From assembly GCA_951230915.1 (NCBI GenBank), contig OX579635.1, positions 21,204,001-21,268,000 of the forward strand: a stretch of DNA of 64,000 nt, read 5' to 3'. The translations under genes were made by a program, and so were the position numbers. This document shows, piece by piece, positions 4,701 through 46,409 of the stretch (position 1 is the stretch's first letter; the number at the start of each line of letters is the position of its first letter). The stretch is from Antitrichia curtipendula. Its lineage: Eukaryota > Streptophyta > Bryopsida > Hypnales > Leucodontaceae. The notes beneath the pieces were generated by a model. The model was given only the letters and a program-made list of their open reading frames with translations, ran no database searches and was not told where the DNA came from.

Positions 4701-5355
4701 TAAACATATTCTTGCAGTGCAATTGATAGTGAAGAAGTATTACGAAAATTTAAATGATGAAGATGTTCCATCTTCAAGCGCAACAATGGAAAGTATAGTC
4801 TTCCCTGTATTTCCAGAGTTTGACAATGAAGACAATACCAACAAAATTATACCATTTGTTGATGAGGGCAAAGATTTCTTACAAGTAATATGTGCTATGG
4901 AGAATGTACTTCTAAAGTTGAAGTCAAGTATTGGAGAATACGGGGCCGAAGAAATGAAGTGTAAGACTGAAATAATGAAGGAATGCATGAATTCAATAAC
5001 GGAGCCTTTTACATTTGCAAAGCCTTCTCCTATCAATCTTCCATCTAAAGGTTCTATTTTATCCATTCAAGAGAATGTACAACGTACAAGAATGGGACAT
5101 GGGAGGAGTTCAAAGAAGAAGGCTACAATAGAAGAAGACACAACTTCGCTTTCAAGAGAAGTCCAACCTATATTGAGACCTCCACCTCACAAATTGATGT
5201 CTACTTTGAAACGAAAAAGGACTATTTTTCCAAGAATTCCAAAGGTAGTTTGTGATGCATGCTTCACAAGAACTATGATAGAGAAGGGTGGTACAATAGT
5301 ATCTTGTCGTAATTGTGATAGACAATTGAAATCTACTAAAAGTAACGTGACATAG
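1793..5355 (+). pseudogene. Mutator-like (MULE) transposase, broken
   Basis: This is a decayed cut-and-paste transposase gene. The N-terminal parts (1793-2065, then 2056-2282 in another frame) are acidic and unrecognised. Segment 2304-2987 carries a Cys/His-rich zinc-finger-like region with the motif YRCHRSG and later CHCEF and HSGHYLG. Segment 3457-4416 is the MULE DDE domain: the first Asp lies in HSWAFDSTFK, followed by YTTVVPNQDG and the TTNYVERHWEW stretch. A SWIM finger of the form CxC-x7-CxH (CDCASLVSSCKH) lies at 4672-4710. A short intron is plausible at 4372-4472 (GTAAGT to TTGTAG). Reading frame breaks occur near 2050, 2282 and 4505-4620, and a MITE interrupts the gene at 2947-3138. 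The C-terminal tail (4717-5355) ends in a CDACFTRT...CRNC cysteine pair. Confidence 0.85.
2947..3138. mobile_element. CACTA-type MITE inside the MULE transposase
   Basis: The element is 192 bp and almost wholly palindromic. Both ends read CACTAGTAGAAAA inward, close to the CACTACAAGAAAA ends of plant CACTA elements. The inner arms (AGGAATTTTGACAG onward) pair over about 80 bp around a short AT centre near 3036. It is flanked by a 3-bp duplication TAC (2944-2946 and 3139-3141), as expected for CACTA. Removing the element and one TAC restores the transposase reading frame across the site (LVHPLVI). Confidence 0.88.
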
Positions 5356-23986: not shown

Positions 23987-26900
23987 ATGAGCAGCCCCAG
24001 AGGGTCTCAATGAGTTGAAGCTCCTAAGCCTCATGAAGGTGGACCTAGCCGAGGAAAATGGACAGAAGAGTTGATGAGAACTGCAATAAATAGCATCAAA
24101 TCAAGAGAAAGGTCCATTAGAAATGCTTCAAAAAAATTCTCAATCCCTACATCATCAATTGCAGATTGGATGTATGGAAAGACCAAGAAAAAGAGACATG
24201 GCTTTGATCCCTACCTAACCAAGGAAGAAGAGTGTGAGTTGAAAGCATGGTGCTTTAAGATGCAAGAAATGACATTCTCTGTGACGTTATCTATTTTAAA
24301 AAATACTGTCCAAGATATTGTAAAAAAGCATCCAAGAAAACATCCATTCAAAGATGATCGTCCTAGACAAACATGGTGGCAATGCTTTAAGTTACGGCAT
24401 CCGGAGGTGGTGTTGCAAATGGGTGAAGCTTTAGAAATGAAAAGGTGTATTGGTTTGAACAAAGTCTTGTATTCACAATTTTATGACAATTTGACCACTG
24501 TGATTACGTCTCAAGGATATGGAGCATCCCATATTTGGAACGTTGATGAAACATGGGTGCAAGCAGTGGGTAGGAACAATACTTTGAAGGTTGTGGCAAA
24601 AAAGGGATCAAAGAATGTGAACGTTTGTGCTAGTGATAGCAGGGAGTGGTTAACTATCTTGGTATGTATTAGTGCTATTGGCACTTTCATCCCTCACTAT
24701 TTCATCTTGAAGGGAACCTATCTTCTTCACAATTATGTTCAACATTGTGGACCAGGTACGACAACATTTGAATGTCTAAGAAAATGGATGGATAACTAAT
24801 GAGATTTTTTGTGACTGACTTAATCACTTTTGACTCAATGTTCCAGGAGGTGTAAGTAAAGACAATAAACACCTTCTTGTCTTAGATGGCCATTGTAGCC
24901 ATATTAGTGCCATGGCACTAGATACATGCATCAAGATGGGATTAGATATCATTACAATCCCTTCACATTCCTCACACCACATGCAACCTCTTGATGTCTT
25001 GTGCTTCAAATCCTTTAAGCAAAATCTTCAAGAGGATAAAGCAGCTATGACATTAGAAAATCTTAATTAGGGCAATGGAGTAATGTTGAAATCAACCTTG
25101 GCCAAAATGGCACCCAATGCTTTGGACAAAGCCTTGAAGCCATCTAATATAATATTAAGTTTCAAGGCAACAGGTATGATCCTATTCAACTCTTCCTTTG
25201 AATATTTGCTAAATTTTTTGCTTGAAATATAAATAAACTTTTATTCAAAGATGTACATGGCTATTTTATTATATTTGAGTTACTGATAATTGAAATTGGA
25301 TTTTATTGGATAATGGGCATCTTTCCAGTGGATTCAACTGCAATGAATAGATACTATGGGCCAAGTCTACCTCACTTAAATACCTTGCCTTTGCTTACAC
25401 ATGTGAAAGAAGAAAAGGAGGAGTTGCAAAAAGATTTGGATGAAGAGATATTGCATCAAAATGTTAACGAAGTCATTAACCGTATTATCGAAGAGGTGCT
25501 TTATGAAGATGATACATTTGAAGAGAATTCAGTTTACAAAGATGATACGTTTGAAGAGTATTCCATTGACATGCCAAATGAGGCACAAAGAGTGGTTCAA
25601 GATTCATTTGTTTGGCCATGTGATGACTCAAATCCAGTGACTCTTAGGACCACTGATTTTGAGTCCCTCACTAAGGGTCAATGCTTAATAGACACAATGG
25701 TGGATTTTTATCTCAAATATCAAGAAAAAAGCATCAATATATGAAGGGATTATATTTTTTCAATAGCTTCTTTTTCAGGAAGCTTGTGATTATTCTAAAG
25801 GAGGATGCTGCAAATGGATTCAAGATAATTGCATGTTGGTTCAAAGGCATCAATATCTTCAAGTGTGACTATATCTTTTTGCCTATTTTATTCAGGTATT
25901 CACTACTATGTTTTGTGAAATCTTATTTGGAAACTTATTTGAAAATTTTAATTTCCAAAATGCTACTAATTAACTATGTTTTCTTCTTGACAATGGACAT
26001 TGGAGCATGATTGTTATGTGTCCCTTGGAAGTGGACCTCATTTATTACATTTGAATTCATTTAAATCAACAACTCATCTGGATGTACAAAGACATATTGA
26101 ATTGTAAGTATTTTTAAATTATATAAATTTTTTCCATTCTATCTTCCATTGTAGATTATTGAATGTAATGCATTAACCTTGATGATATGTTATTTGTATG
26201 GCAGTCTTTTAAGCTCAGAATGGGAAAGACAAAATAGCTTGGAGACTTTGAAAATTTCCAAGAAGGACCTACTTGAGCTTCAAATGCAAGTGGTTGAAGT
26301 AAGTTACAATTTTATCATATATATTTGAAGATGCATTGTTAACAAAGCATATTACAATGAATTTTGTCTTTGAAAATAATATGATACAAATCCAACTCAT
26401 GTTTTCAAATGTTATGTGTATGATTGTATGTAGGTTCCTCAACAACCCAAAGACAATGGCACAGATTGTGGGATTTATTTGATAAAAAATGTGGATGTTT
26501 TTTTACACAATTGTAGAAGGTGTTTCTTTGGGACAAAACAAAGAGAACATAGTAAGTGTGCTTCCCTAAACTGAAGAATATGAAGAGTGTCAAGCTTTTT
26601 TGAATTAAATTTTGAATTATAGTATTCCAAAAGCTTTAGTTGCTTTCAAGTAGATTTTGTATTAACTTGTTGTTAATGCATGTTTGTTCCCAATTGAAGA
26701 AGGTGCATTGGGACCTTCAAAATGTGACATTCCAAGAAACAGAAGTAAATTCTAAGAGAATGAGTATAAAACAAACAATATTGATGCTTGAAGGAGGGTC
26801 AATTTTTTCAACAAGTGATGAAGACAGGTAAGTCATCTAATCTACTAAAAAGAAATTAGAAATTTACAAATTCTTTCAAAGTTATTCAACTTTTTGCAAA

Positions 26901-30332: not shown

Positions 30333-30673
30333 GAACTACCACATCCACCAAAATATGACTCATAAGAGTCATATTTCACATTAGTAAAGTATGACTCACA
30401 AGAGTCATATTCCACATCATTCAAAAATATGACTAACAAGAGTCATATTCCACATCTACAAAAAATATAACTGTACAAAGTTATATGCCACATTACCCAA
30501 AATATGACTAACCGTAGTCATATTCCATGTCAGTCAAAATATGACTGACCGCAATCATATGCCACATTAGCCAAAATATGACTGATCGCAGTCATATTCT
30601 ATGTCAGCCAAAATATGACTGATTGCAGTCATATTCCACGTCAGCCAAAAAATTACTACATGGAGTCACATGC
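30333..30673. repeat. ~37-bp palindromic minisatellite in the CACTA element
   Basis: About nine copies of a unit of 36-39 bp. Each is itself an inverted repeat: AAAATATGACT, a short centre, then AGTCATATTCCACAT. The hAT element is inserted in the last copy. Related ATATGACTG motifs occur at 28985-29070 and 42650-42790. Confidence 0.88.
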
Positions 30674-30689
30674 CACGTAGGCAGGGTTG

Positions 30690-31065
30690 ACGAATTGGAA
30701 CGTCCGGGGGCAAATCATGTCCAAAAATTGGACGTCCGGACGCAGCGGCCACCGTCCGACGGACGCAGACCACCGAACGGGGCGGACGAGCGGACGGCGG
30801 TCGGCCGACGGACGGTTCGACTCAGATGATCCGACCGTCCGATCAAGCGGACGGTCCGCCCGCTCGATCCAGCGGACAGTCCGTCCGTCCGCTCGATCGG
30901 AAGGTCAGACCGTCCGTTCGAACCAGCGGACGGTCAGACCGTCCAATCGAGCGGACAGTAGGTTCATCCGATCAATCGGACGACCGAGTCCGCTTCGGGA
31001 GGTTTGGGAGGGCGTCCGCCGCCGGACCTACTTTAGGGTTGGTGGCGGACGGGTATAAAGGCGGA
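30690..31065. repeat. Left subterminal CGGACG/CGTCCG array of the hAT
   Basis: Dozens of copies of GGACGG, CGTCCG and the palindrome GGACGGTCCG, very GC- and CpG-rich against an AT-rich background. Clustered short motifs near the ends of hAT elements usually bind transposase. The matching right array is at 42165-42520. Confidence 0.9.
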
Positions 31066-31211
31066 CGGCCCTTCCATTCTTCCTCACTTCTTCTCTCCAT
31101 TTAGAGGTGGAACCTGTGTCGAACGTTACAACCGTTGCTTCATTGTGCTGGTTGCTCCTATACGGGTGGAGAGTGAGGTCAATTATTTTTTGATATCACT
31201 TGTCGTCAGCC

Positions 31212-34200
31212 ATGACAACGAAAGGTACGAGCAAGGGTACTGTAGTGATGACTTCAAGAGGTGGCAAGAGCGGGAAGACAAAATCAAAGGGGACTGCCCA
31301 CGAGCTTCACTGGGACATTTTAGATGATCCAAATATCAAAGCGGAGAGCGAATGGGAGAAGGAGGAAGAAACTTATTGGACCTCCAAAATCTGCAAAAAA
31401 TATGTGCAAATGTATCACATCAACAAGTTGTGGCCTCGTGAGTTCCACATTATTCACACACGAGGGTTTTGTTGCAAGCCATCAAATTGCAAGGATGGAC
31501 ATTTTGTCCATCGATCACTTGAGGCTTGGCGGGCCCTCTTCGGGGACAAATCAATGAGTAAGGGTCTCATAAACTACAGCACGGCCTCTATGGTGTATGC
31601 TGAGCTCATATTGGCTCGGAAGGTGGACTGGAGCACATATCCAACAACAACTACGGCTCCGCTTTTGCTTAGAGTAGGGCAAAAAGATATTCCGGATTTG
31701 TATGATCTAAAGGCAAGTCCAAGTGAGGCACCAAAATCACAGAAGCGACAAAAACATGCTTTAATGCAGGTTAAAAAAGAGATCATGGAGGGGGGAAATA
31801 TTGGAGTACATTTGGATTCTACGAAGATTCCAACTACAATGTCAAATGCCACGGTGGAAGGTGTTGACGGAGAGGTGTTTTCAACTCCTCGGGCGGATTG
31901 GATATGCACACGCAATTTTATATCCGTGGGTGAACAAAGTGGTGCTTCAAGCATGCGGCCCGTGAAGGAGGAACCGGTGCCCCCGTCTGCACCACAAAAA
32001 CGTCGGGAAGAGGTTCGTCCCGAACAAATGGCAAGGGCCATTGCATCAATTGATAATATCATAGCGAGCGATGCTACGAATTTTATGACACAAGTACCTT
32101 GCAATCAAGACTTGCCAATCACACCGAGCCCCGTATTGAGTCCCGTATTGGGCCCCGTATCGAGCCCCGTATCAAGCCCCGTATCAAGCCCCGTATCAAG
32201 CCCCATGTTGGGCCCCGTATCGAGCCCAAGAGTTGAAGGGCAGATGTTGCCAAAAAATGGAAAGCAACTTGATGGCATGGCGCAAAATGTGTCCATTGAT
32301 GACAACCCATTGGATAAGAGCTATCCACATTTGTCAACTCAAAATACGGCACAATTGAAGGATCTTTGTCATTTGCCAATGGTGAGTGAATTGGAAAGCT
32401 TGTTGGAAGCTTCTTATTTGTTTAGAGCACATCAACAAGACATCTCTCTTCAACCAAAGCAAGTAATCGAGACAAATGAGTCCGGTCCTAGTAACCCCGC
32501 AAACAAGGCGGGCTTGATTGAAACCGCAAACGAGGCCGGACCGAGTAATCCCTTCGCTGAATACAGTGATGAATGGCCCAATTTTGTGATCACCTCAAAA
32601 AGATTGTCGATTACAGCTAATTTTGTAGCTAGCATTGCCCCCAAACTTATGGAAGTTGCTCAGGTATTCACCAAATCCGGGCCCGAGTTGGTGGAAGGTG
32701 CCTTGTCATTTTGGGATTTCGTCACGTCTATGAAACTATTATTGGAGGAGCGGGTCGAAAATAATCGCAAGGTGCTCATCTTTGCTGAAGAGAATGAGAA
32801 ATACAAGGCCTTGAAGATAGAGCACGAGAAATTGAAAGAAGACCACAAGCAATTGAAGGATGCATTCAAAGGAATGTGCGCTAATTATGAAAGATCTGCG
32901 AACGCACTGGATCGCCGATATGACACTCTAGTTTCTCAAAGGGAATTTATCAAGAAATTGGAGTACGAAATTGTAGCACTCAAGCAAAAGAATTTGAAGG
33001 ACAGGGGATATGTTCTTCTAAAGACCGGCGGAGCCGTGCGTATAGAAGCGGTTGAGGAAAACAACCAAAAGGAAATAATATCCGAAACCGCCATGGATAA
33101 TCCTCCTCCTACATTCCAAGACGCGTTCATGCAAACGGAAGGCCACGAGTTTGAAGAGGTGAAGCATGAACTAGAGTCGGTAACTCAACAAAACGTCTAT
33201 TTGGATGCACAATATCAGAAAATGATGCAAGTAGTGGAGCTAGATAAATGCTTGCCAAAGAGCAGTTCCGACACTCGTTGGTTGACGTGGGTTCAAAAAC
33301 TACAAGATAAACCGTCTGTAGTAACCCGAGCAATGAAGGGGCTTCTCAAATTAGCCATGAAGTCGAAGGAGCAATGCGATGCCATTTCCTCTGACCTCCT
33401 ATCTATTAGAAGGATGTTTGAGGTACATCATAGGGGTTCAATTGATGTCACATATTAGGGGGACATGTCGGCAATGTTTGAGCGATTGAAAGACGCGCAG
33501 AAGATTGCGTCAAAGTCCATCAATTGGACCTTGGAAGTAGAAGAAGGTTGGACCCCTTACAACACGCATTCAACGCACATCAAAGAGGCAGACAAGATAG
33601 TAGTGCATGGTGAAAGTTCAAATACGGAACTATTGGAGGGTAATTGCAGCCTTTGTCTAAATCATTTTGGTCCCGAGGGCGCCTTAATCATGGGCCAATG
33701 TCGCCACACTTACCATATCACGTGCATGGTGAAATCATCCCTTGTTCGTTCGGTTTGTCCCGAGTGTCGGTCTCCTTTGAGCCCTAAGTTTTACAAAATG
33801 GTTGGGCACGAGGAGAGCATGCCCCCTAGCCACGAACACAATCGATGGATCCTTCCACTTGACCAAAAGCCATTTCTATTCCAAAATTACATTCATTGGG
33901 GGCGACCTCTAATTTGGAATGCGCAAAAACTCATGCATGATGTTTGTGAGAACTACAATGACGAATTGGATGACTTTGACTGGATGACGCGCAATAGAGA
34001 GGTGGAGTTGCGGGCTAGGGGTATTGAAGACTTGGAGGCTCGAGAATTGTTTTGTCGTAGCATGGAGGGGACACTGGAGCATCTCACATCAAAAGTTCTT
34101 CCGGTTTCCTGAAAAAGAAGTGCGGAAAGGAGAAGATGGCGTTTGGATAGAAGTGCAACTATCCCAAGAGTTCAATGAGCAGTACGGAGCATACAATCAC

Positions 34201-34554
34201 AGCTTAATAGGGAAGGCACTCTTCTTATCAAAATTGGAAGAAGCTGCGCAAGTTTGTGCTGCTTTTAATGTAAATGGGCTATCAAGCACAGAACATGTAC
34301 TCGTGGAGGTGGCAAGTGCATTTGATAAGAGGATCACCGACATTATAACGAAGTGGAGGACTTTTCTACATGGCATAGGGCAAGCGATCTCGTTGACCCC
34401 TCGAGATGATGACAAAGCGGTAAATGCTATGATAGAAAAGATTTATTCGGCTTTGAGAACGTTAAAGACACAGGAAGTAGATTTGTCTCCCACAAGGAAA
34501 AATAAACGGAAGATGGAAGACGAAGATGACTACTCTCCAGAAACCAAAGGATAA
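31212..34554 (+). pseudogene. hAT accessory gene A: novel module, coiled coil, RING-H2
   Basis: Starts at the ATG at 31212 (MTTKGTSKGT). A stop (TAG, 33456) and a frameshift near 34090 break a frame of about 1,110 codons. Residues ~55-170 form a module with KICKKYV, a Cys cluster, HFVHR, NYSTASMVYAEL and DWSTY, which is shared with the - strand gene at 40.8-41.9 kb. Residues ~305-340 are repeated SPVS. Residues ~525-640 are heptad-rich (coiled coil). After the first stop a RING-H2 finger is clear at 33645-33773: C-x2-C-x14-C-x-H-x2-H-x2-C-x10-C-x2-C, as in ubiquitin ligases. The tail ends KRKMEDEDDYSPETKG. I know no named family for the whole. An E3-like role is inferred from the RING only. 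Confidence 0.7.
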
Positions 34555-35089
34555 TTCATCGCCGTGGACATGGAAGTCCAATCAGGAGGGGGCACAGCCT
34601 CCGGGTCGGTTGGTCCTCAAACTCGTAGAGCAAGTTGAAGACTTAAGGAACAAGAGGGTGCCTCTCATATTTCCGCGAATGGTAGCGATGATGCAAAATA
34701 GTGTTTGTATTAGGGGGTTAACCAATGAAATTTGTTTTGTACTTATTTGAATCTCATGAGGATTCAATATTAATAATGCACAACACTCATGGTATGTCAT
34801 GAGTTGCTTTTAATTAATGTATAAATATTTATGCAATACAAATATGTTTGGATTTGTTTTTTCATAATGGTAAATTTTGCCTTTTTTATTTGTCAAATAT
34901 GTTTCTTTTGTGTACCTATTGCAGAAGATCATACCTATTGTACATTTGTACAAGATCATTTCATGTTATTGTTATGTTATCTTCTATAACCCCATGCCTA
35001 CAAATCACCCATTTTCATTTGCACATACATTTCTATTCGCCTAATCCACTTATCCACCTGTCTACACACTTCAAACATCTTACTGAAAT
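34555..35089. other. Spacer between accessory gene A and the mid-element array
   Basis: AT-rich, with no gene recognised. It holds presumed 3' sequence of gene A (AATAATG and AATGTATAAATA words near 34760-34830). Confidence 0.4.
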
Positions 35090-35512
35090 TGTAAGAACCG
35101 CCTGTCCGCCCGACAGGTTTTAGGTCGGCCCGTTCGCCTGTCCGCCGTCCGCCCGTCCGCTGGACCGACGGCCTAGATTCTCGTCCGCCGACTGCCCATC
35201 CGTTGGACCGACGGCCTAGATTCCCGTCCGCCGACCGCCCATCCGTTGATCTGATGGCCCAAATTCCCATCCGCCCGTCCGCTATTCGGACGGCCCAGAT
35301 TCCCGTCCGCCCGTCCGCTGATCCGACGGCTTAGATTCTCGTCCGCCGTCCGTCCGTCCGTTGTTCGGGTGGACCAGATTCCCGTCCATTGTCCGCCCGT
35401 CCGGTGATCCGATGGCTTAGATTCCCGTCCGCTATTCGGACGGACCAGATTCCCGTCCGCCGTCCGCTGTTCCGACGGTCCAGTTGGCTGTCCGCCATCC
35501 GCGTGACTGTTG
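35090..35512. repeat. Internal CGTCCG array upstream of the hAT transposase
   Basis: Repeats of about 50 bp with GACGGCYYAGATTCCCGTCCG and CCGTCCGCCCGTCCG. Same vocabulary as the subterminal arrays but located mid-element, some 280 bp before the transposase ATG. It could be the transposase promoter with self-binding sites, or a relic of a join between two elements. Confidence 0.85.
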
Positions 35513-35795
35513 TGGGAGGATTTTTTTTTCCCATATTCAACGGTCACAAACAGATGAAGACTATAAGAGTCCTGAAATTGACATTTGCAAACACTCCTAA
35601 GAAACTGAACGTTAAGATTTTCAAGGGCTAGGCGCTGCAATTTTTTGTGTCTTTTGCTTGGTAATGCATAGTTCAGTGGAAAAGAGGGCCTTGTTTTCCA
35701 AGGCTTTGTGCATAAACATTTGAATGATTTTATCCAATTGTTATCATTACGTTTTGAATTTAGGGTTTTAATACACAGAGCCTAAAACAGCCACC

Positions 35796-38700
35796 ATGAC
35801 CAAAGATTGGTCTTCTTGGTACAAAACCCTATCAAATGGAAAAGTACAATGCAAGGCTTGTAAATTGGTATTTGCCAAGAAGCTGGTCCGTATGTTTACT
35901 CATTTGGGATATGCAGGCATATCGGGGAGTCGTGACAAAAGAATCAGCCTTTGTACTCAAATGACATCTGAAATTCGAGGTCTATTTGTTCGTTGCAATG
36001 GAGTGATTCCACAAAGAGGTACTCTACACAATGTGGATGGCAACGACACACCTATGCCTATGGTTGTTCGTGCTATATCAAATGCCAGAGACACTGTGAA
36101 CTCTACTAAAGAAGTCTCATGCATGGCGCCAGAGGAATATGTTGGTGGTTCTTCCCAAGGAAATCCAAGTACACAAGCATCAGGTGGACGTGGAACTCAG
36201 TGGACATCAAGCAGTAGGCCTCAAAGACAGAGTAGGCTAGTAGAGGGATTCGACGAAGCAAATAAACGCATTTTGAATGCGATGTGGGCCAATTTTTTTT
36301 ATGCGGCAAACATACCATTTGCTGTAGCCCGAAATCCAGCCTTCAAAGAAGCAGTGAAGAAAACGGCGGAGTTTCACCAACCTTATAGCCCACCATCATA
36401 CCATGATCTACGTCATAAATTGCTTGACCAAGCAAAGGTAGACTTAGAGGTCAATCTCCGTAAGCGAACAGAAACCAGTATTAGGAAGTTTGGAGCCACA
36501 TTGTCTATTGATGGGTGGACCTCGGTTTCGAATCGGCCATTGATAAATGCCATACTTGTATCATCCGCGGGTGAGCAATTCCTAGGATCGGTGGATACAA
36601 CTGGGAAAACTAAAGATGCTCCATATTTGGCCTCTATATTAGAGAGTTTTATAGAACAAGTGGGCCCTGCAAACGTAGTGCAGGTGAGTATAGATAATGC
36701 GGCTATAAATCCAGCAGCATGGAGTTTGGTATCTACTACCTATCCCCACATTTTTTTCTAAGGTTGCGTGGTGCATGCCTTGAATTTGTTGCTAAAAGAT
36801 TGGGCAAACGAACAATGGATTGATGATGTCGTGAAAGATTCCCGAAAGATAGTCAAATTCCTCAAGAAGAGGCACATGCTGCTTGCGATACTTCGAAAAT
36901 ATTCAACGCAGTACAACTTGTTGTTGGCGGTGGAAACAAGATTTGCCTCGAATTACAACATGGTTGCATGTATGCTCAAGGTGAAAGCACAATTGCAACA
37001 AACTGTGACAGACCCGCAATAGGAGGAATATGCTAGAAAGCACTCGCGAAAATCCAAAACTCGTTTAGAATCCGAACGGATGAAGAAGACCATTCTAAGT
37101 GGGCATTTTTGGCATCGTTGTCAAAATTTTGAAAATGTGACAACTCCAATTGTCAGTGCTCTTCGTAATTTGGATGCGAAGACACCATGCATGGGCAAGG
37201 TGTTACATATTATGAGGAAACTAGAGAAGAACGTCCTCACTTTAGACAAAGAGCCTTTTTGTTTGGCTTTGGACAAAGCCATCCCGTTGGTGAAGGCGTT
37301 CTACGAACGACGTGATATGGTGAAGACCGATTTACATTATGCAGGAGCACTTTTGAATTCCTACCTTCTTGAAGACAAAGAATTAGCCGACGACACCGAT
37401 GCCATGGCTGCATGCAAGCGCGTTTTGATGCAAATATGTACACCTTTAGAGTACGCGAAGGTGGTGAAGGAATTTGTAGCCTTCCGCCATAAGGAACCTC
37501 CGTTCCACAACATGTTGGATCCGGGTGAACAACAATTGTCGGCGCATGCTTGGTGGGATTTTGAAGGCGCGTGCGGGAAGCTCATTACTCCAATTGCCAA
37601 GAAGATTTTGGCCCAACCAATATCATCGTCTTCATGAGAACAAAATTGGAGTAGCTATTCTTTTGTTCACAACAAATATCGGAACAAGTTGAAGCCACAA
37701 AGAGCACAAGATTTGGTATATGTGTATACCAATTCCAAAGTCCTCGGTGCATCAAAGCAAAATGACGAGAAGAAGTGGTACGATGAGAACCTCGAGTCGA
37801 AGGATTCAGCCTTGTCTTCATCGGAAGACGAGGGTGGTGAATCCGGTGAAGAAGTTGATCCCCTCATGGACGATGAAGATGACCACGGCATCCGCAATTT
37901 TGATGATGAACCGCTTCGAAGCCCATCTCATTATGATGCAGACATCGGAGATCATTGTGAAGACCCTTACAAGTTTCCGTTGGATGAAGACGACTGTGAA
38001 TATGACGAAGGTGGACCTTCCATAGCTAAATACTTAGATGGAACCGGGTTGTTGCGTAGTGAAAACATTCTAGCAAATAGGGAAAATACTTATGCAAAGG
38101 TAGCGGAGGAAGGTGAGGAAATGGTTATAGGTGATGACACTCCCCAAATGGATGAAGTGATTCAAATTTCCGAGTGTCCATCCATGACAACGGTAGGAGC
38201 GGAAGAAAATGATCAACACGAAGACATGAGAGAGTGTAGGGTGAAGTCCCACACAAATGTGGTCAACCAAAGTATTGAATTACCAGGGGCATTGACAAGT
38301 GAAACTATTGGACTTTTCGGCATTCAAAATGCCCAAGCACCTCGGATAGAGGGAAGTCAAGATCCATGTGTATTGGAGTCCATGTGCCCAATGCCAGACC
38401 GCAACGCCAAAGACATGAAGCACCTCGTGCGAGATCCTCAATTACCATCACGTAGCGGTCCTCGACATGCACTATATACAAGCGGTAGCACGACTTTGAA
38501 TGGTCTTGGAGACTCATGGTTTAAAGAACAACATTTGAGCAATTTGAAAGAATTGCACATTGAAGCCAATCCCAATCCATCCGTTTCATCAGACAACGAT
38601 GATGTGCAAACATTGGAGTCTATGTTTCGTCGATTTTCTNNNNNNNNNNNNNNNNNNNNNNNNNNNNNNNNNNNNNNNNNNNNNNNNNNNNNNNNNNNNN

Positions 38701-39271
38701 NNNNNNNNNNNNNNNNNNNNNNNNNNNNNNNNNNNNNNNNNNNNNNNNNNNNNNNNNNNNNNNNNNNNNNNNNNNNNNNNNNNNNNNNNNNNNNNNNNNN
38801 NNNNNNNNNNNNNNNNNNNNNNNNNNNNNNNNNNNNNNNGATTGGGACATGACTACTTTACGTAATGAATCAATTAAGTCCTTGTACACGTTCACCTCTC
38901 AGAGTGAGCGGACTGAGACCTTGAAAAAGAGGTGGTGGGTGGACCCTTCTATTGCATACTTGCATAGAAGAGATGCGGATGTGTCAATGATACCGGATTT
39001 ATCACCTAAATTGGAGGAATATGCGGTTGGTCGAATAGCTCAAGCCATCAACAATGGTTGCATGTCGACGGACTATGTGAGCTTACATCGGAAAAATGAA
39101 GGACATACAAGATTTAGCCATGAGGATTTGGCAAAGATTTTTCACCTTTACTTGGAGCGCCTTTGTGATTCGGTGATTGATTCTCGCGGTAGCTTGTCCA
39201 AAATCATCCATCGATTTACCAATAATTACAACTGGCCTATTCCGGATGAACACTTCCGCCACTCATATTAG
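35796..39271 (+). pseudogene. hAT transposase (DUF659 type) with acidic C-terminal extension
   Basis: Start at the ATG at 35796 (MTKDWSSWYK), which begins a BED-type zinc finger (CKAC to HLGY and C; residues ~18-55). DUF659/RNase H core from ~220: SIDGW with a candidate catalytic Asp near 239, VVQVSIDNAA, GCVVHALNLLL, TRFASN. hAT dimerisation region near 37640-37740: NWSSYSFVHNKYRNKL then PQRAQDLVYVY. All of this is in one frame, broken only by stops TAA (36759), TAG (37020) and TGA (37635). Beyond the usual end of a hAT transposase the frame continues ~300 codons of very acidic sequence (SSSEDEGGESGEE, DDEDDHG) to an assembly gap. It then resumes (RWWVDPSIAYLHRR) to a TAG at 39271. The frame across the gap cannot be checked. 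Confidence 0.88.
38640..38839. other. Assembly gap, 200 N
   Basis: A run of exactly 200 N, likely a placeholder of unknown true length, inside the C-terminal extension of the hAT transposase. Confidence 0.98.
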
Positions 39272-39589
39272 TGTCTATGGTGTTAGTGAACGACATAGAA
39301 GTGATAGAACTATAGAAGTATTAGGTAAATGTAGAGGCGAGTACATAAATTTGCATGATTGTTTGCAAACTATCTAGTATATATATGCACCATCAATGTA
39401 TGCCAATATATGTGCACCCTTATAATTCATATAAAATTTTGAAATGTTTGTGTGTTTTGAAACTTCCAATGTCCAATGTCTACCATTCATCATATGTTTT
39501 GCTTGAAATCCTTGGATGAGAAGTGCAATGCAACAATTATTGTTGATGGATGTTAGCTTGGTATGGTTGGGTTCAAAATTGTATAATCA

Positions 39590-40530
39590 ATGTTGAACAC
39601 ATATAACCCCTAAAAGACCAAAGTGATTTTTTTGGCAACATAGCGATTTGGGGCAACTCACTACAAATGGAATTTATATTTTTTTTCTTTGAAATTTTCA
39701 TACAACACGTGCCCAAGGAGTAGCTTTAAGGCCCAACAATTTTCATAAATTTTGACTACATGGTTAAAAAGTTATTGCATGATATGTCGTTTTCAGTCCT
39801 TGGCAGGCCGCACGGGCAGCGAAAAAACTTCTTCAAAAATCACTTTTTAAGAAAATAAAAATTGAAATTGGTTCTTTAGATTTATATGTACATGGGAAGC
39901 TTTGAATCATTCCATTTAGATCTATGAGTCAAAAGTTATGAGGATTCTTAGTTTAAGGGTAGTTATGGAATTTCAACTCTAAAATAAACTTTGAAGTCTT
40001 TTATTTAATTCAATTTTCAATATTTTTGAAAAAAAATAAAAACATTGGGTGTAGATTGTTTATTACAAAATTACAACCGTTGGATTGGCATTTTTCAATT
40101 CCATAAATTAATTCTTCACAATTTAGTGTTTTGAATCATTCTCTACCTCTTCCTACTTACTATTTTTTTCCTATATGTTGTGCAATTCCAAATGATCTGA
40201 AAATTTTCAAGCATGTAGCCAACTTGCCTTCAAGAATAAATTTAAAGAGTAACCACCATTTTGGACATTTTTTCATACAAATGTGACCTTGTGAAGGGCA
40301 GCTGCCCGTTTTTTTGCAGGGACAAAAAAAGGATTTTTGTCAATTCAAACACTATTATCTTGCAATCCACATGGTGGAAAATTCTGAAATTTTTTCCACA
40401 TCTTCTTAAACAAGTTTACTACAAGATCCTATGGTTACATGTGCCCAAGAATGTTTTATTTCTAAAATTTGACACTAGTATTAGAAATGGCAGTTTTGGA
40501 GCGTTTTTGGTGAAAACATAGTCAAAAACA
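39590..40530 (-). repeat. Inverted copy of the 13.2-15.9 kb repeat family inside the hAT
   Basis: Read on the - strand it repeats the blocks seen at 13260-14640: CTGTAGGAT-like start, AGATTGCAAGATAAT, GTTGGCTACATGCTT, then GCAGCGAAAAAAC (+ strand order reversed) and AAATTTTGGGCAGC-like words. It lies between the 3' ends of the transposase and accessory gene C. It may be a separate insertion or part of the element. Confidence 0.65.
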
Positions 40531-40812
40531 TTTAGGAGATAATGATAATAGAATTTCATCGTACGCAAATATTTTTTATATTGAAAAGCAATACAGTTGA
40601 TACTTGAACAATACCGCTATGATGATACCAAGTACTAACGTCCAAATACATTTTAATACAATATATTTACATCAAAGTAATTTAGTACGTAAATGCTATT
40701 TGCCGAAATGCCGATATTTTTGTACTGTGATTGCCACACTCCATAATCCAATGGCAAAAGATTCCAAGGCCCACTCGATTGTGAGACAACAACTAAAATA
40801 GCTCTACCTACT

Positions 40813-41910
40813 TTACTCGGAATCTGAATGGATGTCATCTCTACGTTTTGGTGGTGTGGAACCGGATCCATAAGTGCCAAGATATGGTCCTCCGCCCCAA
40901 GTGCATCCATAGTCGCTTGGCGTAGCTCCTTGATTGGGATTTCCATAGTAAGGACCTCCAAAAGTTGGAGGAGGAACTACATCACGGTGCTGAGACCTTC
41001 CTTGCATTGGTTCGACATGACGAGAGCCTGTGTGACGCTCATATGAACCACCCGTAGTAGATCCGGACAAGTATTGGGAGCCTCCTTGGCTAGATCCAAA
41101 ATCATGTGTGGTTCCATGGCTTCTTTCTGGGTTGTAATAAGTACCTCAGGGGTTGTTAGCGTAGTGTAAGACCCTTTGACCATCTTGTGAATCAGATGCA
41201 GTACGATCATGTTGGTAGGACCTGTCATGCCCGTGTTGTTGACCCCGATCCTCCATGCTTCTACGCATAGCTTCTTGCATTTGTTGATTGAACTCGATGT
41301 CTTCCCGAGCTTCTTGATGCTCATGTCCCACTGTAAATGTTACGGGTGCTGGATTGTCTTCTACATCATCGTCGTCTGACCGTTCATCCTCAGCATCCAG
41401 CAATACAACCGGCGGAAATCCAAACTGCCCTCGAATGGACCACATTTGCATACAATCGCTCGGTTGAGTCCAACTCGTATAAATAACAGCGTCAGTGCGC
41501 TTCATATTGTCAACATTTTTCCCATAAATTGTGCACCAATCTTCATCTTTGTGGAGTACAATCTCTGCCCAAACCATGGCCATGTTGGAATAATTCATAA
41601 CATTTGGTTTGGAATCAGGCAGCTCAGCGCACCGCATTACTTCCTCGTATCGGTGCACAAAGTGTTGGCTCTCGCACGTGGAAATTTGTCCTTCCCAGCG
41701 TCGAACTTGTTTGTCTGCTCTTTCTTGTGACCACATTTTGGAGAGGTGCGTCGTTTTGACGTACTTTTTGCACATTGTGCAGTCCCAAACCTTCTTGGGC
41801 TCTTCTTCCCATCCAGGTTCAGCTACACACATTGGATTTGCCCAATCTCCCTAGTTCATGTCCTGGGATTTGCTTCTGTTACTGGACCTTGAACTACTAT
41901 TGCGAGGCAT
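40813..41910 (-). pseudogene. hAT accessory gene C, sharing the N-terminal module of gene A
   Basis: Start at the ATG at 41910 (MPRNSSSRSSNRS). In-frame stops at codon 20 (TAG, 41853) and after HYANNP (TGA, 41148) break an otherwise continuous frame of ~365 codons ending at 40813. Residues ~30-130 match accessory gene A motif by motif: DWANP; CTMCKKYVKTTHLSKMW; QHFVHRYEEV; MNYSNMAMVWAEIVL; DEDWCTIY. After this the protein differs. It has an acidic stretch (DAEDERSDDDDVED), a helical Gln/Arg-rich part and a Gly/Tyr/Pro-rich tail (GGPYYGNPNQGA) with no coiled coil or RING. Function unknown. The shared module could be a DNA- or protein-binding domain common to both accessory proteins. Confidence 0.65.
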
Positions 41911-42164
41911 GATAACCTTGATTAAAATGAAATGATTTGATGACAAAGTTCACATGAATCTTTAGAACAACTGAACAAAATGTTTGACACTTGCCAATGA
42001 AACGAGGTGAAGTTGTTAACAACGCCTTCAAAACCAAGTAATCACCAAAATAATTTGGTGCAATTCAGTATCCAAGCACAATCGTTCACGCACCAAAACA
42101 AAAGGGGCACGCAGAGCCACTGAGAGGCACTGGATCACCCACTCCGCAAGGAAAACGATTGTGA

Positions 42165-42520
42165 GGAATGAGCCGTCCGCCGCGCTATTTATGGTGTCCG
42201 AAGGCGGACCAGGCAATGCGGGCAAATCGGACGGCCCAGAATCGGACGGGCAGATCATGCGGACGGGATCGCGCGGACGTCCCGTCCGCACGTGCTCGTC
42301 CGCGCGATCACGTCCGCAAGATCCGACTGCGCAATCTCGTCCGCGAGCCCGACGCCCTGTCCGCCCGAGGGCCCGTCCGCGGGACTGTCCGCGAGCCTCC
42401 CGACCGCGCGGACGATCCGACCGATCGGATGGCCCGTCTAGGGATGTCAAAAGACGTCCGGGGGTCAGCGTCCACGTCTGCCGGACGTGGACGCGGACGT
42501 CCAGACGTCCTGTCAACCCT
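42165..42520. repeat. Right subterminal CGGACG/CGTCCG array of the hAT
   Basis: Dense GGACGG, CGTCCG and CCGCGCGGACG words, running up to the right terminal repeat and mirroring the left array at 30690-31065. It lies upstream of accessory gene C and so also covers its promoter. Confidence 0.9.
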
Positions 42521-42815
42521 GCACGTAGGATTTATTTTTGTTTGCCCGAGCAACTCGAAAAAAAGTCAAGCCCTCAAAGATAGTCAAAGTATACGCCTTA
42601 TTGGCAAAAAATACGGCTAATTATGGATAATTATACTCCCCAAAAAATATGACTGCCAATATGACTGATGTCCGAAGCGACTCGTCGGTAATGACTCATG
42701 TCAATCATGTTGCAGTCATCTATAGTGATTTCTGCGGCTAGTTATATTTTTCAATTTTACGACTCATTGCAGTCATATTTTGCAGTCATAAAACATTGGT
42801 TTTATTGTAGTGAAT

Positions 42816-43841
42816 GTACGGGAGCTGGGTTTATCATGAACTGAGCCAAATGATTTATAGAAAAAAAAATATCCCATCGGGTACAAGAAACAAGATATTA
42901 TAGGGCTCTAAGGCTTGCTTATAAGGCACATCATTCATAGCAACAATTTCACCATCAGTGAGGTTCTCGCTTTGCTCACGAGAATAATGGATCCCAACTT
43001 CTAGAGGAGTACTGACAGAATTACAGTCAGTCATGTAGAATTTAGTCAAAATATCGGTAATATATTTTGCTTGTGATAATGTGAGGGTCTTGATTGAGCG
43101 ATCATGGTGAACTTGAATTCCAAGTATATATTCAATTTCAGAATTGTCCGTCATAGAGAAGTGTTGTGAGAATAACAATTTGGTGAGGGATAAATATTGA
43201 AGATCATTGGAAATGAAAACCAAGTCATCAATATATAAGCCAATTAATAAAATGATAGAGTAAGATCGTTTGATGTAAACATTAGGATCGGAGATGCATT
43301 TTAAGAAGCATTGGTCTAGTAAGAAAGTAGCAAACAATTCATACCATACGCGAGAGGCTTGTTTAAGCCCATAAAGAGACTTAAGCATGCGGCATACTTG
43401 AATCCGGGTACTGGGGTGGATGTAACCTTCGGGTTGAGAAATAAAAATTTCTTCTTGTAAAATGCCATTGAGAAAGGCGGTAGTCACATCCATTTGATGA
43501 ATGTGGTAGTCCATTATTGTGGCGAAGGCCAATAAAAGTCGTAGTGATGTCATTTTTATAACAGGTGAGAAGGTCTCATTATAATCAATACCTGCTTGTT
43601 GAGAAAAAACCCGAGCTACAAAGCAAGCTTTGTAGCGAGCTAAGGAACCATCAAATTTGTATTTCCAACGGAAGAGCCATTTTGTACTAATAATATTGCG
43701 ATTGAGGGGTGGATCAACTAATTGCCAGGTTTTGTTTTGAATCAAAGAATTATACTCGGCATCCATGGCACTTTTCCATTGAAGAGCATGAGGACTAGAA
43801 AGTGCTTCAGTCACAGTGACAGGGTCTAAAATTTGAGTCAT
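42816..43841 (-). pseudogene. Copia reverse transcriptase
   Basis: The - strand frame keeps the copia RT order: WKSAMDAEYNSL, ISTKWLFRWKYK, YNETFSPVIKMTSLR, QMDVTTAFLNG, SLYGLKQASRVWY and the catalytic box GLYIDDLVF. Near 42880 the reading leaves the expected frame, shortly before the CACTA insertion point that separates it from the RNase H at 28.6-28.9 kb. Upstream of 43841 the polyprotein continues in broken frames toward the integrase. Confidence 0.9.
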
Positions 43842-44747
43842 GAAAGCAAAAGCATAGAGGCTTTCATCTTCATATCTGGTTGATTGCCAGTGGCCCTTAG
43901 TGTAGCGTTTTGATCGTCGAGGAGAAAGACCAGTTACAAATTGAGGTCTTTAGGGAGGAGAGCGCTGCGGAGAGGGTGCTGAAGATTTAATCGAGGAATC
44001 TTGTGATAAATGAGGCGGTGATGGTGGGTCAGGTAAGTGTTGCTAAATTGGAGGGGTTGGCGGCCCATTCAACGGAAGAGGATTGGTAACCTCTAGAATA
44101 TTATAATATTCATTAGTCTCAACAGTTAGTTCATCAGGTGGTCGTTTGGAAATAAGAGCTCCCCTTGGAAGTAATAAATTTTTTGAGAAAATTACATCAC
44201 GGCTTGAGAAAACACGATTATTCTTTGAATTGTATAATCGATAACCTTTTGTGCCAATGGGTTTACTATAACCAATGAATATACACTTTAAAGTTTTTGT
44301 GTCAAGTTTGGTGCGCTTTTCATCTGGATTATGAGAATATGCTTGGCAACCAAAAATACGAAGGTCTCAAAGATCAGGTTTTATACCTATCCAAAGCTCA
44401 AATAGAGTAACATTTGTTAAAGCTGAAGTGAATGAACAATTTTGTAAATGGCATGCAGTCGCAATTGTTTCTGCCCAAAAGGAGTTATTTAATTTAGCAA
44501 TGTGAAGCATACATCTTGCGGATTCAATTAAAGTACAATTTTTCTTTTCAGAGATTTCATTTTGAGTAGGAGTATATGGGTTAGTAAGTTGGCGTTGAAT
44601 GCCATGAGCCATACAAAATTGTTGAAACTGGTGTGAAATATATTCTCCCCTGTTATCAGATCTGAGAAGGAGGATCTTAGAATCACCATGTTGATTTTCC
44701 ACAAGAGATTTATAGGTTTGAAAATGGATCAAAACATCAGATTTCAT
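43842..44747 (-). pseudogene. Copia integrase and linker
   Basis: 44367-44747 on the - strand holds the integrase core: LRSDNRGEYIS with the second catalytic Asp, TPTQNEISEKKN (usual copia form QNGVAERKN; Gly replaced by Glu) and ARCMLHIAKLNNSFWAE. Sequence down to 43842 is the linker between integrase and RT, with stops and shifts. The first catalytic part near 44750-44890 is out of frame. Confidence 0.85.
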
Positions 44748-44891
44748 GTGTAGGAAATAAATGTGAGTGAATCTGGAGAAGTCATCAATGAATGTGACGA
44801 AATAAATTGCACCACCAAAGAGGGTGTACGCATGGGTCCATAGAGATCATTGTGAATCAAAGCTAAAGGGACAAGAGCCCGGGTTGCAATA

Positions 44892-46409
44892 TCAATCGGA
44901 TAAGAACTTTTGGAGTGTTTTCCAAAAATGCAGCCTACATAAAGGTAAGGTTGATTTCATTGGAGGAAGTCTATTTACTAAATTGTTGGAGTTCATAAGA
45001 GATAAAGAACAGATGTTGAGATGCCCGAGTCTATAGTGCCATTTGATTGTATCAAGATCAGACGTTTGTGAAGTCATCATATTATGACCTAAATCGGAAG
45101 GCTCAATGCCAACTCCAAGGGTAAATAAGTTACCGGTTTTGCTCAGTTGATATTTGGTTTGCTGTTGGGACTCTGGAGATCGGGTAGCAATAATGCATTT
45201 TGTGTTTGTAAAGGTAATAGTGGTATTGCCAGTTTGTGTGATCTGGACTACAGATAAAAGATTTCTGGCTAATCTTGGGACAAAGAGCGCATTTGGGATT
45301 AATAAAGTTTGGCCAGTGGGCAGCCGCAAAAGTATGGATCCCATTGCAATAGCACTGTAGGAGCTATTATCTCCAAGGAGAATTGTGCGAGAGGAATCCA
45401 ATATTTTATAATTTCTAAATAGTGTCTTAAGAAGCAACATGTGGTGGCTAGCACTAGAATCGATGTACCACATTGAAGAAATTGCGTGGAGAGATTCAAG
45501 GGCTGTAAAAAGATATTCTATGTCTTCTTCACTTGCTGAGCTATTGAGATGAGGTTTTGACAAACCAGGCTTGCCCGCGAAGTCCTGCTTTTTCTTTCTG
45601 CAATCGGGAGCTTTGTGCCCCGAGATGCCGCAATAGTGACAAATTATAGCAGATGATTGATTTGAATTGGGGAAGTACTTTTGCGTGGAGTTGTTACTAT
45701 GCTGTGGTCGAAACTTTGGCTTACCCAAGGTTTGAAATTGATTTGAAGGTTTTCTATTATTTGTGGATTTTATAAACTTCCCTTTGATATAAAAAGCGGT
45801 AGATTTAGATATCTCACGTTTAGAAATATTGATGGAGTTTTGCTGGAGAATATTAGATAGAAGAGTCGAAAAGGATAAATTGTTAATACCACCTTGTGTG
45901 GTGATAAAGGCGCTCCAGGAATCTGGTAAAGCTCCAAGCAGCAAATTGACTTGTTGATCTTCTGTAAAAATACAGCCGGCCATTTCAGCTTCGGTGAGAA
46001 GTGATTGCCATGTCTCCAAGAAGGACATAGTTTTGTCTGAATCAAACATAGTTAAGTGGCATAGTTTCTTATGCAAATTGAACTACGACGCTTTATTAGA
46101 TCTCTCGTAAATTTGTTTTAAACGATCCCAAACCTGCTTAGAGGTTTTAAAAGAGCGTAGAAAAAATAATTGTTTCTCATTGCAATGGAGCAAAAGCTCT
46201 GATCGAGCTTTTACGTCACGTAATTTCTAGGCTATCAAGCCTGCTACGTCACTTCCAACAGAAGTTGCATCGCTGCCATCGACAACGTTCCATAGTTCGC
46301 AGTGAATTAATAATAACTCAAGTTTCATACTCCAAGACGCATAATTATCTACGCTTAGAATTGGAATTACATAAGTTAAGTTTGCTGAAGTTGATCCAGC
46401 GGTGGCCAT
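44892..46409 (-). pseudogene. Copia gag-protease with zinc knuckle
   Basis: Starts with MATAGSTSANLTY at 46409. That frame ends at a stop at 46227, and the gag frame re-opens from 46076 (SFLETWQSLLTEAEMAGC, LLLGALPDSW). The zinc knuckle CHYCGISGHKAPDC has the C-x2-C-x4-H-x4-C form. The protease site reads WYIDSSASHHM, with Ser in place of the usual Gly of D-S-G. The pre-integrase motif WHYRLGHLN closes the segment. Confidence 0.9.

What the first reader, a model, noticed from the sequence alone, without database searches (positions are those of the whole stretch)
30682..42521. Very large hAT element carrying two paralogous accessory genes
Seen: exact 8-bp duplication, CAGGGTTGAC ends, and three genes between them. 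The outer two, in opposite orientation, share a module (CKKYV, HFVHR, NYS..MV.AE, DW). One adds a coiled coil and a RING-H2 finger. Known: plant hATs are normally a few kb with a transposase alone. Inference: accessory proteins may help the element, for example by binding its arrays or by ubiquitin-based control of host factors.
Basis: partly seen in the sequence, partly recalled or inferred. Interest (0 to 1): 0.93.

Follow-up and report, generated by a model that had tools for sequence, protein, structure and literature searches.

The report
Multi-gene hAT transposon with ligase, kinase
This is one worn copy of a common jumping gene, about 16,000 to 18,000 bases long when complete, that carries not only its own cutting enzyme but also a ubiquitin-ligase-like protein, a kinase-like protein and a small partner protein, each behind its own cluster of short repeats, which is far more machinery than this class of jumping gene is known to carry.

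Summary
In detail: exact 8-bp duplication CACGTAGG, CAGGGTTGAC ends, and two proteins (A, C) sharing a module. Other copies in the same genome show it was understated. Complete copies are about 16-18 kb with four genes: A (module, coiled coil, RING-H2), B (hAT transposase), D (494-aa kinase-like protein) and, facing the other way, C (module plus disordered tail). The window's 200-N gap hides most of D and the end of B. Eleven of 12 copies read at both ends have perfect, different 8-bp duplications, so the unit moves as one. A, B and C relatives lie on ENA contigs of length 17,649, presumably one contig. A distant contig, L001, has an intact A beside the C-terminal part of B. A second family in the same genome has its own A, B and D in 16.1 kb with a perfect duplication. 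CCGTCC-type arrays precede every gene in both families. How the extra proteins act is not shown; I favour an element-encoded circuit acting through the arrays, like VANDAL/VANC. Selection tests among recent copies were inconclusive, a test for protected arrays negative. New variant of the hAT kind.

The parts
30674..30681 (.). left copy of the 8-bp target site duplication, CACGTAGG
30682..30691 (+). left terminal inverted repeat CAGGGTTGAC
   Evidence: left end of the 11 other copies read with 0-1 mismatch
30701..31067 (.). CGTCCG array upstream of gene A (18 sites, both orientations)
   Evidence: 18 observed, 1.79 mean and 7 at most in 300 shuffles
31212..34698 (+). gene A: shared module (about 31275-31637), coiled coil, RING-H2, conserved C-terminal region; broken in this copy; end taken from the match to relatives
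33642..33770 (+). RING-H2 finger of gene A, spacing C-x2-C-x14-C-x-H-x2-H-x2-C-x10-C-x2-C
   Evidence: zf-RING_2; RING-H2 spacing pattern in 6 of 6 A proteins
35146..35466 (.). CGTCCG array upstream of gene B (17 sites)
35796..38639 (+). gene B: hAT transposase (DUF659, hATC), acidic extension; broken; end lost in the gap
38640..38839 (.). 200-N assembly gap; about 4.9 kb of a full copy is missing across it
38840..39271 (+). C-terminal part of gene D (kinase-like, 494 aa where open in other copies)
40813..41910 (-). gene C: shared module plus disordered tail, about 365 codons; broken in this copy
   Evidence: relative P0004 predicted disordered after the module
42174..42499 (.). CGTCCG array upstream of gene C at the right end (14 sites)
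42512..42521 (-). right terminal inverted repeat
42522..42529 (.). right copy of the target site duplication, CACGTAGG

Best explanation
SHOWN: the window holds a decayed, gap-bearing copy of a multi-copy hAT element whose complete copies (about 16-18 kb) carry transposase B, RING-H2 protein A, kinase-like protein D and module protein C, with CCGTCC-type arrays before each gene. SHOWN: A, B and D also occur together in a second, distantly related family in the same genome, so they form an old set. INFERRED (about 0.4): the arrays are both transposase-binding subterminal sites and the element's own promoter switches. Protein(s) carrying the A/C module, or B's zinc finger, bind them. A (ubiquitin transfer) and D (phosphorylation) then act on the array-bound complex or on host silencing factors held there, so that the element keeps its genes on and times transposition, comparable in layout to VANC acting on VANDAL arrays. 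C would be a small partner that competes with or recruits A.
For: Unit moves as one: 11 of 12 copies read at both ends have exact 8-bp duplications, all different. Spacing: 21 of 40 left ends have a convergent C gene within 22 kb, chance about 0.003 each (coordinates from the capped lists). Gene set in 10 fetched copies: A in 10 (one cut short), B in 9, D in 7, C in 6 within the stretch fetched. Second occurrences: A, B and C relatives with open frames (1140, 1080, 392 aa) on ENA contigs of length 17,649; L001 with intact A (855 aa, RING E=4e-9) beside the C-terminal part of B, which runs off the contig; family 2 with B2 (open, 1026 aa), D2 and A2 (both broken in the copies read) in 16,129 bp, duplication CCCTTGTT. 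D: Pkinase E=8e-6 and 1e-4 in two copies; glycine loop, lysine, HND...N and DWG seen in 7 of 7 copies, two of them near-identical; D2 26.8% identical to D over 467 aa, E=7e-47. Arrays: 49 of the window's 52 CGTCCG sites lie in three arrays; arrays precede A, B, D and C in family 1 and B2, D2 and A2 in family 2. Host attack: 671 of 964 private changes are C-to-T type, with rates highest at CG and CHG, as expected of methylated plant elements.
Against: pN/pS among recent copies is A 0.72, B 0.59, D 0.54, C 0.56; the two out-of-frame readings give A 0.64/0.91, B 0.58/0.66, D 0.56/0.63, C 0.74/0.65. Only C, and barely D, lie under both controls, so constraint is not shown. The arrays show about the same methylation-type decay as the genes (CG 0.32 against 0.27), so no sign that they are kept unmethylated in resident copies. 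No Pfam match for the shared module over cut-off, and Foldseek and VIA found no convincing relative of the predicted fold. Family 2 shows no separate C gene, so C is not part of the core. The Pkinase match is under Pfam's cut-off. Activities of A, C and D are unmeasured.
Confidence: 0.55

Rival explanations
1. The accessory proteins are transposition factors only: they assemble, activate or turn over the transposase on the arrays and have nothing to do with host silencing.
For: The window's arrays reach to about 20 bp from both ends, the right arrays of other copies as near or nearer, as transposase-binding subterminal repeats do; B's N-terminus has a C..C..H..C pattern like a BED finger (sequence reading, not a call); a copy without B still has perfect ends and duplication and kept A, D and C, so B can probably act in trans.
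Against: Arrays also stand before internal genes, away from the ends, which fits a promoter role too.
Confidence: 0.3
2. A, C and D are captured host genes riding along without function.
For: No clear selection signal among recent copies; gene capture by plant transposons is well known (recalled; stated for MULEs in PMC6446971, passages seen).
Against: A and D occur with a divergent transposase in family 2, and A in L001; L001's A is an open frame of 855 aa at 24% identity to P0045; none of the relatives listed bears a host-gene name.
Confidence: 0.06
3. The window is a nest of unrelated insertions or an assembly artefact around an ordinary hAT.
For: There is a 200-N gap, and one fetched locus (C8) looks rearranged.
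Against: 11 of 12 copies have perfect duplications, and the order A, B, D, C recurs among the fetched copies.
Confidence: 0.02

Closest known systems
Ac/Ds-type and other plant hAT elements (recalled)
   Same: 8-bp duplication, CAGGG-type ends, DUF659/hATC transposase, subterminal repeats
   Different: Known autonomous plant hATs are a few kb with the transposase alone (recalled); these are about 16-18 kb with three or four genes, and the arrays recur before internal genes
VANDAL21/Hiun with VANA, VANB, VANC (Arabidopsis MULE; PMC5735166 abstract and sections 4 and 9 read; PMC10398659 abstract and passages)
   Same: Three-gene element; tandem arrays of a short motif in non-coding parts (upstream of VANA21, in VANB21 and VANC21 introns); motif differs between related families
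   Different: MULE, not hAT; VANC has DUF1985/DUF287, not found here; no RING or kinase named in what I read
MuDR (mudrA/mudrB) of maize (PMC6446971, passages)
   Same: Plant DNA transposon with a second protein of unclear role
   Different: Different superfamily; two genes; no RING or kinase named in the passages
En/Spm TnpA/TnpD (recalled)
   Same: Accessory protein binding subterminal repeats that overlap the promoter
   Different: CACTA superfamily; no RING or kinase (recalled)

Membership tests
hAT superfamily | 8-bp target site duplication | tested here: met
   11 of 12 family-1 copies exact; the one family-2 copy read exact
hAT superfamily | short terminal inverted repeats of CAGGG type | tested here: met
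   CAGGGTTGAC in family 1 (12 copies: 0-1 mismatch left, 0-2 right), CAGGGTTGTC in family 2
hAT superfamily | transposase with DUF659 and C-terminal dimerisation region | tested here: met
   P0056: DUF659 1.5e-36, Dimer_Tnp_hAT 29.4 bits over cut-off 21.4; in the window DUF659 1.6e-24, hATC 14.8 bits, below cut-off
RING-H2 (C3H2C3) proteins | eight metal ligands in RING-H2 spacing | tested here: met
   6 of 6 A proteins; zf-RING_2 over cut-off in the window, P0050 and L001, just below in P0045 and P0046
RING-H2 (C3H2C3) proteins | ubiquitin ligase activity | not testable with these tools
   needs a bench assay
protein kinase fold (gene D) | profile match over curated cut-off | tested here: inconclusive
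   Pkinase E=8.3e-6, 25.8 bits against cut-off 31.7, and E=1.2e-4 in a second copy; best solved structure by sequence E=0.035
protein kinase fold (gene D) | glycine loop, lysine, H-x-D...N, D-x-G | tested here: met
   by eye in 7 of 7 family-1 copies, two near-identical; HND...EN and DWG also in the C2 family-2 copy, not in one frame in the C8 copy
VANC anti-silencing proteins | DUF1985 / DUF287 domains | tested here: not met
   window A fragment: 0 Pfam families at E<=1; window C fragment: only zf-C3HC at E=0.015, below cut-off; P0004, P0010, P0021: 0 families at E<=0.5; P0045, P0046, P0050 and L001 A: RING and chance matches, neither domain
VANC anti-silencing proteins | sequence-specific loss of methylation of own element | not testable with these tools
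   fossil test negative: arrays decay like genes, which does not test an active element

The most novel reading that the evidence does not exclude
An old clade of hAT transposons carries its own post-translational regulatory kit, a RING-H2 ligase and a kinase-like protein, targeted to arrays that precede every gene. This would be an hAT counterpart of VANDAL/VANC, evolved independently and using ubiquitin and phosphate transfer rather than a bare DNA-binding anti-silencer.
Probability: 0.35. Interest if true: 0.92.

Novelty: new variant of a known kind. Interest (0 to 1): 0.85.

Why it matters
Plant hAT elements are the textbook case of a transposon that needs one protein (recalled). A clade with a conserved multi-gene kit gives a second, independent system in which to ask how transposons escape or use host control, with defined cis targets and a natural copy lacking the transposase. 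Copy number looks very high: 1,866 first-look candidates for C (114 scored, all matched) and 1,842 for the family-2 type transposase (44 scored, all matched) in a 400-Mb genome; the candidates are not verified copies. Eukaryotic transposons carrying both a ligase-like and a kinase-like gene did not turn up in my paper searches (listings only), which cover open-licence PMC papers only.

Tried and rejected
Nested or artefact reading: rejected by duplications at 11 of 12 copies. Captured host genes: unlikely, because A and D recur with a divergent transposase. Selection by pN/pS among copies: inconclusive; C and barely D fall under both out-of-frame controls, A and B do not. A recheck showed that the alignment made one false stop in the window's A where matching pieces were joined, so the per-copy stop counts, and the 65 stops drawn from it, are approximate. 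Arrays kept unmethylated: no sign. Fold of the C module: confident model (pLDDT block means 83-95 for residues 21-130 of P0004), but no convincing match in the PDB, VIA or viral libraries; the module was not predicted alone, so its fold relationship is open. The gene A model was too poor to use (mean pLDDT 38.5). A SUMO-site reading of the transposase's C-terminal motif GAEVKGDSDY (14 of 20 B relatives by pattern) was dropped, because P0073 and P0074 have P for K. Viral-contig scans with C, B, A and D gave no loci. Rfam (gathering scores) and tRNA scans of the window: none. Family-2 ends at the C8 locus were not found; the locus looks rearranged. A search for plant genome papers to place the host gave nothing useful (listing). 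TATA-like boxes beside CGGACGG upstream of A in the window and in L001 are suggestive only; L001's three CGTCCG sites at its right end are no more than the highest of 300 shuffles of that stretch.

Host not identified.
Full report
What is in the window. The element runs from 30682 to 42521. It has CAGGGTTGAC ends, each found once in the 64 kb, and an exact CACGTAGG duplication. A and C share a module: four C relatives match the window's A at 37-44% over 117-123 residues, and three A relatives match C. The copy is broken: A has one in-frame stop, a frame change near 34.1 kb and two later stops, B three stops, C two. A 200-N gap lies at 38640-38839.

Relatives. Gene C has 44 relatives among 80 candidates, 24 of them 337-397 aa long and the rest shorter, at 37-70% identity. 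Gene A has 10 among 7,983 scored, three of them over 1,000 aa. The transposase, read through its stops, has 26 among 7,987 scored at E<=1e-20. One protein from each list (P0046 for A, P0056 for B, P0004 for C), each from a single ENA contig, is given a contig length of 17,649. I take this to be one contig carrying all three genes, but the contig itself could not be fetched. A scan of bacterial and archaeal genome contigs gave three transposase loci. One, L001, filed under a cyanobacterial MAG and evidently misplaced eukaryotic DNA, has the C-terminal part of B, open for 680 aa from near the contig's start, and 744 bases after it an intact A of 855 aa with a RING at E=4e-9. Three CGTCCG sites stand at the end of that contig, which may be the start of an array; 300 shuffles of that stretch also reached three.

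The complete element. The window's own genome could be searched: 400 Mb in 303 contigs. The left end with the start of A has 543 first-look candidates, of which 40 were scored: full or nearly full matches at 78-100% identity, the window's own copy included. Gene C has 1,866 first-look candidates; all 114 scored are full length or nearly so, 40 of them without a stop. I fetched ten copies. A is present in 10 of 10 (one cut short), B in 9 of 10, D in 7 of 10 and C in 6 of 10 within the stretch taken. One copy has an open B of 1,105 aa. A fourth gene, D, lies between B and C: 494 aa, Pkinase E=8e-6 and 1e-4 in two copies, below Pfam's cut-off, with a glycine loop, lysine, HND...N and DWG in 7 of 7 copies, two of them near-identical. 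Against one full copy the window lacks about 4.9 kb across its gap, most of D included.

One unit. Of 12 copies for which both ends were read, the window's included, 11 have exact 8-bp duplications, all different. The exception, C2_266325-, may be two elements mispaired. From coordinates alone, 21 of 40 left ends have a convergent C gene within 22 kb, 18 of them at 15.3-17.4 kb; chance is about 0.003 each. The other 19 had none among the 114 C genes scored, out of 1,866 candidates, so their state is unknown. An 11.6-kb copy with a perfect duplication has A, D and C but no B; it was probably moved by transposase from elsewhere, unless it lost B afterwards.

A second family. At C8 and again at C2 the same genome carries another hAT with A2, D2 and B2. 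The C2 copy is 16,129 bp with CAGGGTTGTC ends and duplication CCCTTGTT; its B2 is open (1,026 aa), its A2 and D2 are broken. B2 is 55-57% identical to P0074 and 48% to the L001 transposase over 259 residues; A2 matches L001's A over 725 residues (25.5%, E=5e-42); D2 matches D over 467 residues (26.8%, E=7e-47). No separate C gene was found there. P0074-type transposases have 1,842 first-look candidates, 44 scored, 7 without a stop.

Arrays. 49 of the window's 52 CGTCCG sites fall in three arrays, at the left end before A, before B, and at the right end before C; 300 dinucleotide shuffles of the element give 3.07 on average and 9 at most. The nine copies with B also have CGTCCG sites after B and most densely before D where D is present, and all 13 right ends read carry an array. 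Family 2 has related but different units (such as CCCGTCCA, GCCGTCCA, CCGTCCAG) before B2, D2 and A2 and at its other end. A shared core with family-specific flanks resembles the VANC targets (PMC5735166, sections 4 and 9; PMC10398659, passages).

Tests that went against function or gave nothing. Among copies pN/pS is A 0.72, B 0.59, D 0.54, C 0.56; the two out-of-frame readings give A 0.64 and 0.91, B 0.58 and 0.66, D 0.56 and 0.63, C 0.74 and 0.65. C, and barely D, fall under both; A and B do not. With this mutation bias I do not count it as constraint; that evidence rests on open frames and conserved motifs across distant lineages. Of 964 private changes 671 are C-to-T type, at rates of 0.29 in CG, 0.25 in CHG and 0.12 in CHH, and 53 of 65 stops, counted on the alignments, arose by one such change (at least one of the stops is false). 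Arrays decay like genes (CG 0.32 against 0.27, CHG 0.21 against 0.25, CHH 0.16 against 0.12), so there is no sign that they stay unmethylated. The module's fold has no convincing known relative in these searches, which does not show that it is new.

How it most likely works. Shown: a mobile four-gene unit with arrays before each gene, and an old A-B-D set. Inferred from the domains: B cuts and pastes at the ends; the arrays are both subterminal binding sites and promoters; A transfers ubiquitin and D phosphate on the array-bound complex or on host factors; C, which shares A's module, is a partner or competitor. I give about 0.4 to a role in keeping the element expressed and about 0.3 to a role in transposition only.

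Novelty. No paper describing an hAT with such genes turned up (search listings; open-licence PMC only). It is an hAT by every feature tested, so a new variant of a known kind.

Noticed in passing
window 2304-5355: MULE transposase remnant (PF10551, E=1e-11 for 3457-4413; neighbouring frames 2304-2987 and 4717-5355 not tested).
   Followed up: partly
window 24071-24799: Tc5/pogo-type transposase fragment (HTH_Tnp_Tc5, E=3e-4, just below cut-off).
   Followed up: no
window 42855-46076: Copia-type retroelement remains on the - strand beside the right end (RVT_2 E=3e-67, Pol_BBD E=3e-18).
   Followed up: no
window 30339-30678: Tandem array of a 37-bp unit with TATGACT/AGTCATA words directly left of the element; similar words right of it, so the insertion may sit inside another repeat.
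   Followed up: no
L001 (CADCWO010000266.1): A contig filed under a cyanobacterial MAG carries plant-type hAT genes: probably misbinned eukaryotic DNA.
   Followed up: partly
C5:28294824-28306469 (L052, L046): Transposase-less copy with a perfect duplication that keeps A, D and C.
   Followed up: partly
L030 4512-6065: 517-aa open frame beside the family-2 array at the C8 locus, no Pfam match over cut-off.
   Followed up: no
L025 3328-4920: 530-aa frame with a RING (E=7e-5, below cut-off) beyond another copy's transposase; relation unclear.
   Followed up: no
C-terminus of B relatives: GAEVKGDSDY-like motif near the end of 14 of 20 B relatives by pattern and in family-1 copies (e.g. HSSGAEVKGDSDYQP); unexplained.
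   Followed up: partly
full copies about 8.9-11 kb: About 2 kb between B and D, 93-97% alike between most copies compared, with no long open frame in the five copies listed.
   Followed up: partly
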